A DNA stretch of 36,539 nt from a virus. Below are positions 132 to 20,127 of the stretch, in pieces (within the stretch, counting starts at the first letter, position 1; each line of letters opens with the position of its first letter). The stretch lies in the IMG/VR virus record IMGVR_UViG_3300042934_000252, positions 1 to 36,539 of that record; one strand, written 5' to 3'. The notes beneath the pieces are model-generated. The model had not been told where the DNA came from and made no database searches. It saw nothing but the letters and a program-made list of their open reading frames with translations. The position numbers and the translations under genes were made by a program.

Positions 132-503
132 TCACCAGATGGGTGACGACTTCACCGGTGCCACAGGGCCAGCCGAGCCGTGGAGCTTTGCTCTTGCTTC
201 GGCCAGCGTCATGTCTGACTTCCACCTGTTGCACTTGCGATGCATGAGACGGCAGTTGTTGCGGTCATACGGTGAGCCACCACGACTGCGTGGCAGGTCT
301 TCGTCAACCTCTGGCCTGAGTGGATGAGGTATGCATCCTGCGCACTGTCCTCCCCCGCACTTGGGGCCATGCTCCCCGGGCTTCATTCCGAGGGTCTTAT
401 CTACGGGCTTGTCACAGAGGGCACAGCGGGTCTCTTCTGAGAGCACCCTCAGTCGGAGTTGTCTGCGCCTGTGTCCGTTGGCGTCTGGTCTTGGGGATGC
501 CAT
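132..503 (-). CDS. HNH endonuclease near the packaging end
   Basis: This 123-residue protein is an HNH-family nuclease. Visible features are a basic N-terminus, a C-x2-C pair at about 28-31 (CALC), a second Cys-rich stretch (C-x8-C), then the D-E-D-L-P-R-S-R-G-G-S-P-Y-D-R-N-N core and the closing M-H-R-K-C-N segment with H and N. In many cos phages a small HNH protein encoded beside the terminase genes is needed for DNA packaging. Its place at the edge of the window fits that role, but this is inferred from position. The start at 503 is preceded by a GGGGGAG ribosome binding site. Confidence 0.8.
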   Translation of the reverse strand: MASPRPDANGHRRRQLRLRVLSEETRCALCDKPVDKTLGMKPGEHGPKCGGGQCAGCIPHPLRPEVDEDLPRSRGGSPYDRNNCRLMHRKCNRWKSDMTLAEARAKLHGSAGPVAPVKSSPIW

Positions 504-823: not shown

Positions 824-881
824 GTGGTCAGCCGGGACTCGAACCCGGACGCGTGGCCTTACGCGGTTCCCACTCTGACCA
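824..881 (-). ncRNA. tRNA-like RNA lacking a D-arm
   Basis: On the minus strand a perfect 7-bp acceptor stem (TGGTCAG with CTGACCA) encloses a perfect 5-bp T-arm with the standard loop TTCGAGT and a 5-bp hairpin (CGCGT with ACGCG) in the anticodon-arm position. Only about nine bases lie between the acceptor stem and that hairpin, so there is no D-arm. The hairpin loop is six bases, or eight with a 4-bp stem. The total is 58 bases. No CCA is encoded. It is probably a degenerate or minimal tRNA-like RNA; an amino acid identity cannot be assigned. Confidence 0.45.
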
Positions 882-960
882 GCCTTCTGCGAGGGTTGCA
901 ACTCCCGGGATTTATGGCTGAGCGTCGGCGAACCGGCTTGCACAACCCAGGCACTCGCAT

Positions 961-1047
961 TGTGGAGCTGCGCGGAGTCGAACCGCGTGTATCCGACCAC
1001 CGAAAGGCGAGATGTTCCTTCGGGTGTCGGGCTTTCCTGTCAGCCCC
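961..1047 (-). ncRNA. tRNA-like RNA with a tmRNA/alanine acceptor stem
   Basis: The minus-strand RNA begins GGGGCTGAC and ends CAGCTCCACA, giving a 7-bp acceptor stem with a G3-U70 wobble and discriminator A73, the known identity signals for alanyl-tRNA synthetase. The T-arm is perfect (CGCGG, loop TTCGACT, CCGCG). The 51 bases between hold no normal D-arm or 7-base anticodon loop. Instead they form a long hairpin around CCGAA with TTCGG. The acceptor stem matches bacterial tmRNA exactly, yet the RNA is only 87 bases, with no room for a tag-coding region. It may be a tmRNA or tRNA-Ala mimic, or a decayed tRNA. Confidence 0.45.
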
Positions 1048-18060: not shown

Positions 18061-18219
18061 ATGGCTAGGGCTAAGGGTGCTACTCCGGTGTCGAACTTCC
18101 GTATCCCCGCGGAGCTGAAGCAGAAGGCCGTGGAGAAGGCTGAGTCGGAGGGGCGGAGTCTCACCGACGTGATCGTGGATTACCTGCGTGAGTACACCAG
18201 CGGTGACCAAGATGGCTAG
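18061..18219 (+). CDS. Ribbon-helix-helix regulator of the integrase operon
   Basis: The 52-residue protein reads A-T-P-V-S-N-F-R-I-P-A-E-L-K-Q-K-A-V-E-K-A-E then G-R-S-L-T-D-V-I-V-D-Y-L, a ribbon-helix-helix (Arc/CopG) domain in which the first strand contacts DNA and the G-x-S-x-T turn starts helix B. It overlaps integrase by eight bases. A likely role is autoregulation through the GTCTTTACAG repeats, or control of integration direction. Confidence 0.8.
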   Translation: MARAKGATPVSNFRIPAELKQKAVEKAESEGRSLTDVIVDYLREYTSGDQDG

Positions 18220-19447
18220 GCCACCGCTGCCGCTGGAGACTTACGGGAAGATCCGTACGTTCACTCACAACGAGAAGCCGGCCGCTAGCGCTTGGTACCG
18301 CGACAGTGACGGTGAAACACGACGGATGATGCGGACGGGGCGGACGAAGGCCCTAGCGGTGAACGCGCTCAAGGAGGCGCTGCGTGATCGTCTGGCGCCG
18401 GCCGGGGAACTCATCACCCGCGACTCCACCCTCCTCCAGTTGGCTGATGCGTGGAAGGTGGAGATGCTGGCGGACACGAACCTGGCGGACGGGACGAAAC
18501 TCACCTACCAGGAGGCGTTGAAGGCGGTTCTGCGGGGTTTGTCGGGTGTGCGGGTTGGGGAGGCTACCCCCGCGAAGCTGAACCGTTATATCCAGGCTGT
18601 GGCGTTGAAGACTCCTGGGCAGGCGCGGACGGTTCGGATTGTGTTGAAGCACATGATGTCGTTTGCGGTGTATGCGGGTGCGGTGGATTCGAACCCGGTG
18701 CCGGAGACGAAGGCGGTGACGCGGACGAAGCCGAAGGTGAAGGCGTTGCGTGCGGCCGACATTGCTGCGATTCGTGGGTTGTTGGAGGTGTGGGATGCCG
18801 GGTTCGACCGGTACCAGCGTCCACGGAACGGGAGTCTGCGGGACACGATGGACATGTATGCGGCGACGGGTGCGCGCACGTCGGAGGTTCTGGCGTTGCG
18901 GTGGTCGGACTTCAACTTCGATTCGATGCCGCCCACGGTCACGATCAACGGGACTGTCTCTAGGAGCATTGACGGGAAGCTGGTTGTGAAGGACACGTTG
19001 AAGACGGACAAGTCCCGGCGTGAGCTCGAGTTGCCTGTGTTCGTGGTGCCGATGCTCGAGGCCCGCGCCCGCGAGGCGTATTCGGATCTGGTGTTTCCGT
19101 CTGCGGCGGGGACGCCGCGGTGGCCTGACAACCTTCGCAGGGATTGGCGGGCCGCACTGGACGGGTCCGGGTATGCGTCTGTGACTCCTGGGGCGTTCCG
19201 TAAGGCTGTGGCGACGGTGCTTGCTGAGGATCTGGGTGTTGAGGCTGCGCGTGACCAGCTCGGGCATACGGGGTTCGGGAACCTGCGGCATTACGTGGAG
19301 CAGGCTTCGCGTGGGCCGGCGTCCGCGTCGACCGTGCAGAAGTTGCTGTCCCCTGTGTCTGGGGTGGCTGTTAATGTGAACGTAGAAGCCCCCGACCCGA
19401 TTGCGACGGGCCGAGGGCAAGAGCCGACTAATAAGGAGTCGACATGA
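18212..19447 (+). CDS. int: Tyrosine integrase
   Basis: This 411-residue recombinase has an N-terminal arm-binding region, a core-binding domain (near 75-160) and a catalytic domain. Catalytic residues visible are R222 in G-A-R-T-S-E-V-L-A-L, R330 in P-G-A-F-R-K, H352 in L-G-H-T-G and nucleophile Y361 in L-R-H-Y-V. The usual His of the H-x-x-R motif is replaced (G-A-F-R). It would join attP (19966-20015) to a host tRNA gene. The start at 18212 overlaps the previous gene; the C-terminal tail overlaps the leader of the next gene. Confidence 0.93.
   Translation: MARPPLPLETYGKIRTFTHNEKPAASAWYRDSDGETRRMMRTGRTKALAVNALKEALRDRLAPAGELITRDSTLLQLADAWKVEMLADTNLADGTKLTYQEALKAVLRGLSGVRVGEATPAKLNRYIQAVALKTPGQARTVRIVLKHMMSFAVYAGAVDSNPVPETKAVTRTKPKVKALRAADIAAIRGLLEVWDAGFDRYQRPRNGSLRDTMDMYAATGARTSEVLALRWSDFNFDSMPPTVTINGTVSRSIDGKLVVKDTLKTDKSRRELELPVFVVPMLEARAREAYSDLVFPSAAGTPRWPDNLRRDWRAALDGSGYASVTPGAFRKAVATVLAEDLGVEAARDQLGHTGFGNLRHYVEQASRGPASASTVQKLLSPVSGVAVNVNVEAPDPIATGRGQEPTNKEST
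19388..19446 (+). promoter_or_regulatory. Tandem-hairpin mRNA leader, copy D, inside the integrase 3' end
   Basis: Hairpin 1 (19388-19418) is GCCC-c-CG-a-CCCG, loop, CGGG-c-CG-a-GGGC: the same two-stem shape with different bases. Hairpin 2 is CGACT/AGTCG around AATAAGG, holding the Shine-Dalgarno. It lies entirely within integrase codons apart from the final bases. Confidence 0.6.
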
Positions 19448-19889: not shown

Positions 19890-20127
19890 CCACTAGCGCA
19901 GAAAACCGCCCCGTCAGTCCGAAGACTGGCGGGGCGGTTTCGTTGATTTTCCGGGGCTGTGGGCCTGGTGGCGAGTGAGGGATTCGAACCCCCGAATGCT
20001 GAGCAGTCTGGTATGCAGTCGCGGTTACCTGGGCCTACTTCCGTCTACCGTTTCCCGTGTTTTTGCGGGGAAGTAGTCACAGGGAGTCACAGGGAAGCTC
20101 TGAAAACAGCCACTAAACCGCCACCAG
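19872..20127. other. attP with tRNA-derived core and arm repeats
   Basis: The core near 19966-20015, read on minus, ends GGTTCGAATCCC-x-CACTCGCCACCA, the T-arm and acceptor end of a tRNA gene. It is flanked by two 25-bp direct repeats (19872-19896 and 20103-20127, 21 of 25 identical) rich in GCCACTA, and by a tandem AGTCACAGGG pair (20075-20094). These are the expected integrase arm sites. The exact crossover cannot be placed. Confidence 0.72.
19903..19940 (+). terminator. Intrinsic terminator after the integrase operon
   Basis: AAACCGCCCCG-t-CAGT pairs with ACTG-g-CGGGGCGGTTT around a six-base loop, a 16-bp stem with one U-G pair, followed by TTTCG. It lies just after the stop at 19889 and within the attP region. 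Confidence 0.8.

What the first reader, a model, noticed from the sequence alone, without database searches (positions are those of the whole stretch)
961..1047. 87-base RNA with a tmRNA-identical acceptor stem but no anticodon arm
GGGGCTG...CAGCTCCA carries G3-U70 and A73, the alanine identity set used by tRNA-Ala and tmRNA, and the 7-bp stem matches the tmRNA acceptor exactly. The T-arm is perfect. The body is a single long hairpin with no 7-base anticodon loop, and the RNA is far too short for a tag reading frame. It could be charged with alanine without decoding: a decoy for alanyl-tRNA synthetase, SmpB or trans-translation, or a decayed tRNA.
Basis: partly seen in the sequence, partly recalled or inferred. 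Interest (0 to 1): 0.65.

Follow-up and report, generated by a model that had tools for sequence, protein, structure and literature searches.

The report
Tag-less mini-tmRNA of an actinobacterial phage
This phage encodes a short RNA that keeps only the tRNA-like part of tmRNA (the RNA that rescues stalled bacterial ribosomes) and has lost the part that codes the degradation tag; many other phages carry similar RNAs, all with the alanine-charging signal intact, which suggests they interfere with, or replace without a tag, the host's ribosome rescue.

Summary
On the minus strand, 1047-963 encodes an 85-nt RNA plus C74: a tmRNA-type acceptor stem with G3-U70 and A73, a D-loop-like linker, one long hairpin in place of the anticodon arm and mRNA-like domain, and a perfect T-arm. 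It is not a decayed tRNA. Rfam's tmRNA model is its best family match. It belongs to a large group of 67-108-nt tRNA-like-domain-only (TLD-only) tmRNAs in phage contigs (98 loci from one pattern, over 120 from another) and in isolate phages of Streptomyces, Microbacterium, Pontimonas and Stenotrophomonas. An acceptor-blind search gave 42 sequence clusters with 22 acceptor stems; all 42 keep G3-U70 and A73. No carrier tested encodes SmpB. The RNA is essentially absent from bacterial chromosomes. One precedent is published: mycobacteriophage DS6A's TLD-only tmRNA. Papers citing Mao et al. 2009 say that RNA, or a similar one, strongly inhibits tmRNA in E. coli. Most likely mechanism: host AlaRS charges it, host SmpB and EF-Tu bind it, and it competes with tmRNA for stalled ribosomes while adding no tag. 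What is new here is the breadth and the strict conservation of alanine identity. Expression, charging and function are inferred, not shown.

The parts
963..1047 (-). TLD-only (tag-less) tmRNA, 85 nt to the discriminator A73; 962 is C74
   Evidence: fold z = -3.16; RF00023 best family; family model R1 E = 2.9e-7
1041..1047 (-). acceptor stem 5' strand GGGGCUG, with G3 of the G3-U70 pair
   Evidence: invariant in the 11 RNAs of the clade
1031..1040 (-). D-loop-like single strand ACAGGAAAGC (GG available for elbow contacts with the T-loop)
   Evidence: nearly invariant in the window clade; GGAAAGC also in canonical member L013
993..1030 (-). variable hairpin replacing anticodon arm and mRNA-like domain (5 bp CCGAC/GUCGG, 2x2 mismatch, 7 bp, 10-nt loop)
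   Evidence: hypervariable in the clade: 28% column identity against 92% in the TLD
971..987 (-). T-arm CGCGG-UUCGACU-CCGCG
964..970 (-). acceptor stem 3' strand CAGCUCC, with U70
962..963 (-). A73 discriminator and encoded C74 (the rest of CCA would be added by the host)
   Evidence: A73 in 42 of 42 and C74 in 39 of 42 clusters of the family
132..503 (-). HNH endonuclease downstream; same order RNA - tRNA slot - HNH as in Microbacterium phages Dismas and Armstrong
   Evidence: phrog_338 E = 1e-19

Best explanation
The locus encodes a TLD-only, tag-less tmRNA. Proposed mechanism: (1) the phage transcript is trimmed by host tRNA-processing enzymes and CCA is completed; (2) host alanyl-tRNA synthetase charges it through G3-U70/A73; (3) host SmpB, which takes the place of the missing anticodon arm, and EF-Tu bind it; (4) the complex occupies stalled ribosomes (and ties up SmpB) in competition with host tmRNA; (5) with no resume codon and no tag frame, no degradation tag is added. 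The net effect is to block or bypass SsrA tagging during infection. Shown here: anatomy, family, conservation of the alanine identity, absence of a phage SmpB. Inferred from the cited precedent: inhibition of tmRNA. Inferred only: charging, expression, and what happens on the ribosome.
For: tmRNA-type acceptor, discriminator, T-arm and no anticodon arm. Best Rfam family is tmRNA, ahead of tRNA. Many phage relatives score over Rfam's tmRNA cut-off with the mRNA-like domain deleted. Structure covariation 0.381 against 0.113 in shuffles and at most 0.127 in slid controls. Acceptor-blind pattern: 42 clusters, 22 acceptor stems, G3-U70 in 42/42, A73 in 42/42, C74 in 39/42. SmpB absent in 30/30 carriers. 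No second tmRNA hit over cut-off in those carriers. Window clade: TLD part 92% identical, hairpin 28%. Same synteny in isolate Microbacterium phages, which keep G3-U70 with a compensatory change at the fourth pair. DS6A precedent: a TLD-only tmRNA, with inhibition of tmRNA reported (PMC4131195; PMC11915505).
Against: No RNA or charging data. The window RNA itself scores below Rfam's gathering score, and no better than a tRNA-Ala with the family model (38.5 against 38.1 bits). Its D-loop lacks the UUCGAC of canonical tmRNA. According to PMC4131195, chargeability was not needed for inhibition in the Mao et al. test, so inhibition alone does not explain why G3-U70 is conserved. One close relative (L110) has an altered acceptor. 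No sigma-70-like promoter or terminator was found at the locus.
Confidence: 0.68

Rival explanations
1. Tag-free rescue rather than inhibition: the charged RNA accepts the nascent chain on stalled ribosomes, leaves it with a single added alanine, and the ribosome is recycled without tagging, so phage proteins escape proteolysis.
For: Strict G3-U70/A73 conservation implies that charging matters, which plain SmpB titration would not need; mitochondrial tag-less tmRNAs are retained together with SmpB (PMC11915505).
Against: No known step frees a peptidyl-TLD without a stop codon. A GCN...stop frame in the hairpin is no commoner than in shuffles (13 against 11.0 of 42).
Confidence: 0.2
2. Alanyl-tRNA synthetase decoy: a competitor for AlaRS that lowers charging of tRNA-Ala or tmRNA.
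For: Alanine identity set conserved.
Against: AlaRS recognises mainly the acceptor stem, so conservation of the tmRNA-type D-loop and the GGAC linker would be unexplained.
Confidence: 0.06
3. attP remnant of a phage that integrates in the host tmRNA gene.
For: tmRNA genes are common integration sites; Gordonia and Tsukamurella phages found here carry a tmRNA 3' end as attP beside the integrase. The window phage has an integrase.
Against: In the one read in full (Yeezy) the site has no 5' acceptor half, and all lie next to the integrase. Here the RNA is complete and 17 kb from the integrase (18188-19447), which has its own tRNA 3' piece at about 19977-20000. Relatives keep the whole TLD with a different hairpin.
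Confidence: 0.02
4. Decayed tRNA-Ala, or chance tRNA-like sequence.
For: The model scores a tRNA-Ala equally; the locus lies in a tRNA cassette.
Against: A large phage family with the same architecture and covarying stems; 11 RNAs of one clade with a 92% conserved TLD but no anticodon arm; Rfam prefers tmRNA over tRNA.
Confidence: 0.04

Closest known systems
TLD-only tmRNA of mycobacteriophage DS6A (tmID 11587; Mao et al. 2009, RNA Biol 6:355, known here only through PMC4131195 and PMC11915505)
   Same: Phage-encoded tmRNA reduced to little more than the tRNA-like domain, no tag frame.
   Different: The DS6A sequence could not be fetched, so its hairpin and D-loop were not compared. Here the hairpin is long and hypervariable and the D-loop is GGAAAGC. 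The cited reports describe only the one phage.
Standard bacterial tmRNA (ssrA, Rfam RF00023)
   Same: Acceptor stem, G3-U70, A73, T-arm, no anticodon arm, helix between D-loop and T-arm.
   Different: No resume codon, tag frame or pseudoknots; 85 nt against about 366-369 nt in actinobacterial tmRNAs seen here.
Tag-less tmRNAs of mitochondria (jakobids and others) and of some plastids
   Same: TLD without a coding region.
   Different: Organellar genes thought to serve the organelle's own ribosomes; this one is a phage gene acting in a host that has its own tmRNA (inferred).
Full-length phage tmRNAs (e.g. Bxz1-type mycobacteriophages, Melnitz)
   Same: Phage-borne tmRNA gene, presumably using host SmpB.
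   Different: Those keep the tag frame and can tag; this cannot.

Membership tests
tmRNA (ssrA, full-length) | tRNA-like domain with 7-bp acceptor, G3-U70, A73, T-arm, no anticodon arm | tested here: met
tmRNA (ssrA, full-length) | mRNA-like domain: resume codon and tag reading frame ending in a stop | tested here: not met
   85 nt, hairpin of 38 nt; family hairpins show no excess of GCN...stop frames
tmRNA (ssrA, full-length) | pseudoknots between TLD halves | tested here: not met
   only 38 nt lie between the D-loop-like strand and the T-arm linker, folded as a single hairpin
TLD-only (CDS-less) phage tmRNA, DS6A type | phage-encoded TLD without coding region | tested here: met
   viral record, no tag frame
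TLD-only (CDS-less) phage tmRNA, DS6A type | sequence or structure homology to DS6A RNA | not testable with these tools
   DS6A record not held
TLD-only (CDS-less) phage tmRNA, DS6A type | inhibits host tmRNA | not testable with these tools
   reported for the DS6A type in E. coli (PMC11915505, PMC4131195); needs experiment here
   window D-loop is ACAGGAAAGC and linker AUACA; L013 is intermediate (GGAAAGC with canonical hairpin)
   R1 match over positions 1-80, E = 2.9e-7; not specific against tRNA-Ala
tRNA-Ala | D stem-loop and 7-nt anticodon loop on a 5-bp stem | tested here: not met
   fold; ARAGORN none
attP of ssrA-integrating phage | 3' half only, beside the integrase | tested here: not met
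   both acceptor strands present; integrase 17 kb away; contrast

The most novel reading that the evidence does not exclude
Phages of many lineages carry a dedicated, aminoacylated, tag-less tmRNA that is more than an SmpB sponge: because alanine identity is kept invariant while the rest of the acceptor stem covaries, the charged form must act, capturing nascent chains on stalled ribosomes so that infection proceeds without SsrA tagging.
Probability: 0.35. Interest if true: 0.82.

Novelty: new member of a known kind. Interest (0 to 1): 0.64.

Why it matters
A tag-less phage tmRNA was known, as far as the papers held show, from one phage (DS6A). Here it appears as a widespread class that ARAGORN misses and that is unannotated, or overlapped by a called protein gene, in the isolate phages examined. 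If it works as proposed, blocking or replacing trans-translation is a common phage strategy. The invariant G3-U70 raises a sharp question: why keep chargeability if the uncharged form already inhibits? Candidate RNAs in phages of Microbacterium foliorum and Streptomyces, laboratory hosts, make this directly testable.

Tried and rejected
Chance: rejected by fold z-score, tmRNA-model E-value and the size of the family. Decayed tRNA: rejected by conserved architecture and covariation. attP: rejected by completeness and distance from the integrase, with true attP cases as contrast. Permuted two-piece tmRNA: the partial cyano_tmRNA and tmRNA_permuted matches cover mainly the T-arm and 3' acceptor; the matching 5' half lies upstream in ordinary order. 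Residual micro-tag: GCN...stop frames not above shuffles. Cellular origin: 69 genome-contig hits turned out to be 40 chance matches inside full-length tmRNAs plus, mostly, tRNA-Ala with a chance upstream GGGGCTG; L176 and L134 look genuine and a few others are unclear. The acceptor-blind pattern gave 0 in 395 genomes of one class. DS6A record not held. Mao et al. 2009 not held. No isolate match to the window RNA itself by BLAST. The 57-nt neighbour 825-881 gave no 57-nt relatives: the 27 pattern hits are 71-72 nt, the size of ordinary tRNAs.

Full report
WHAT IS THERE. The window is a 36.5-kb viral record of a tailed phage with terminase, portal, tape measure and tyrosine integrase. Its nearest named terminase relatives are actinobacterial phages. 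On the minus strand, 1047-963 reads GGGGCUG-ACAGGAAAGC-[38-nt hairpin]-AUACA-CGCGG-UUCGACU-CCGCG-CAGCUCC-A. It folds as a 7-bp acceptor, a 10-nt D-loop-like strand, one interrupted hairpin and a T-arm, at -36.9 kcal/mol, z = -3.16. G3-U70 and A73 are present. There is no D stem and no anticodon arm. ARAGORN calls nothing.

IS IT tmRNA-DERIVED? On the isolated stretch the best Rfam family is RF00023 tmRNA, E = 5e-8, spanning model positions 1-374 with the mRNA-like domain skipped; the same family gives 31.5 bits, E = 8e-13 in a record-level search. Both are under the 47-bit curated cut-off, and the whole-window cmscan did not list it. A covariance model built only from other phage RNAs finds it at E = 2.9e-7. 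That model scores a true tRNA-Ala at 38.1 bits against 38.5 for the window RNA, so membership rests on architecture and relatives, not on this score.

THE FAMILY. The pattern GGGGCTG-N50-80-T-arm-CAGCTCCA found 98 loci in viral contigs. Most are 79-108-nt RNAs with the tmRNA D-loop GGUUUCGAC, a capped hairpin and the GGAC linker that precedes the T-arm in tmRNA. Many score over Rfam's tmRNA cut-off with the mRNA-like domain deleted. On 32 dereplicated sequences the four-helix structure pairs in 87.7% of cells against 72.7% in shuffles, with covariation 0.381 against 0.113 shuffled and at most 0.127 in slid controls.

ALANINE IDENTITY IS SELECTED. It yielded 84 unique RNAs; 83 have a perfect 7-bp acceptor, drawn from 24 different stems, yet G3-U70 and A73 occur in all 83. 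After clustering at 85% identity: 42 clusters, 22 stems, G3-U70 42/42, A73 42/42, C74 39/42. Positions 4-6 vary by compensatory change, so the stem is not simply inherited unchanged. Inference: the RNA is recognised by AlaRS and its charging matters.

PHAGE, NOT HOST. The first pattern in 84,980 bacterial and archaeal genomes gave 69 hits. Forty lie inside full-length tmRNAs and most of the rest are tRNA-Ala with a chance upstream GGGGCTG; L176 and L134 look genuine and a few others are unclear. The acceptor-blind pattern gave 0 of 395 genomes of one class, the class of Isoptericola. None of 30 carrier records encodes SmpB (control genomes ring), and none has a second tmRNA match over cut-off. 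Many carriers are fragments, so this absence is partial. Tag frames: a GCN...stop frame in the hairpin is no commoner than chance.

ISOLATES. Unannotated examples, or examples overlapped by a called protein gene, occur in Streptomyces phages LuckySocke, GiJojo, pSt2308 and BRock, Pontimonas phage phiPsal1 and Stenotrophomonas virus Jojan60 (acceptor GGGGCAU/AUGCUCC, CCA encoded). Microbacterium phages Dismas, Armstrong, Quenya and Franklin22 carry a version with acceptor GGGCCUG/CAGGUCC, next to tRNA genes and an HNH gene at the right genome end. That is the order seen in the window. About 20 further Microbacterium records match only in the T-arm and acceptor region and were not opened.

THE WINDOW'S OWN CLADE. 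The window and ten relatives, most of them from two related metagenomes, keep the TLD part at 92% mean column identity while the hairpin is 28% and its length makes the RNA 81-105 nt. The RNA sits in a cassette between conserved flanks whose other contents change: tRNA-Asp, tRNA-Asn, tRNA-Trp or tRNA-Gln genes (the Trp and Gln calls are from reading the sequence). Two relatives lack it (L004, L109), and L110 has an altered acceptor with the wobble at position 4. L013 joins the two groups: GGAAAGC D-loop like the window, hairpin like the canonical family.

MECHANISM. The direct precedent is mycobacteriophage DS6A. PMC11915505 says its CDS-less tmRNA was reported and shown to inhibit endogenous tmRNA when expressed in E. 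coli. PMC4131195 says DS6A's RNA is little more than the TLD and that a similar molecule, chargeable or not, strongly inhibits tmRNA, perhaps by titrating SmpB. The primary paper (Mao et al. 2009) was not available. I therefore favour a trans-translation competitor charged by host AlaRS and carried by host SmpB and EF-Tu. Because uncharged RNA reportedly also inhibits, the invariant G3-U70 suggests that the charged form does something more, such as occupying the ribosomal A site or accepting the nascent chain. This last step is inference.

ALTERNATIVES. attP is excluded by the complete TLD, by distance from the integrase, and by a separate tRNA 3' piece near the integrase at about 19977-20000; tmRNA 3' ends that look like genuine attP sites in Gordonia and Tsukamurella phages lie beside the integrase, and the one read in full (Yeezy) has only the 3' half. 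A decayed tRNA does not explain the family. An AlaRS-only decoy leaves the conserved D-loop unexplained.

NOVELTY. The kind is known (DS6A, and organellar tag-less tmRNAs). New, as far as the papers held show: its breadth in phages, the strict alanine identity across covarying acceptors, the hypervariable-hairpin clade of this window, and named isolate phages for testing. No expression or charging evidence exists here.

Noticed in passing
window 825-881, minus strand: 57-nt D-armless tRNA-like sequence (UGGUCAG...CUGACCA, perfect T-arm), matching mascRNA weakly (E = 0.0012 on the short stretch), at the slot where relatives have ordinary tRNAs; no 57-nt relatives found.
   Followed up: partly
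window 887-958, minus strand: 72-nt element (TGCGAGTGCCTGGG...TTGCAACCCTCGCA) conserved in L071 and L078, with a tetraloop swap UUCG to GAAA on a kept stem; no known family.
   Followed up: partly
window about 780-1070 and relatives L004, L025, L045, L071, L078, L109, L110: RNA cassette between conserved flanks with interchangeable contents (TLD RNA; tRNA-Asp, -Asn, -Trp, -Gln), suggesting a swap site for tRNA-like genes.
   Followed up: partly
L063, L086, L109 (about 110-150 nt upstream of the 3' flank): Long odd tRNA-like sequence containing GATCGTCTAATGGAATGGCC (one or two bases differ in L086) and ending in a T-arm (GATCCGGGTTCGAATCCCGCAAGCCGAC) with a large insertion; possibly an intron-bearing or expanded tRNA.
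   Followed up: no
window 19977-20000 (minus): T-arm and 3' acceptor of a tRNA beside the integrase gene, probably the attP core.
   Followed up: partly
L314 (Streptomyces phage GiJojo 17023-17265): A protein-coding gene is annotated over the TLD-only RNA; the RNA is unannotated in LuckySocke, pSt2308, BRock and phiPsal1.
   Followed up: yes
L134:5188-5272 (Chloroflexota MAG) and L084:588-695: TLD-only RNAs with a long near-perfect hairpin, unlike the canonical 8+3-bp hairpin; possibly a further subgroup.
   Followed up: no
L136, L143 and other Nocardioidaceae and Promicromonosporaceae tmRNAs: The 3' part of the normal tmRNA contains a second GGGGCTG about 87 nt before the 3' end, a trap for pattern searches for short TLDs.
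   Followed up: yes
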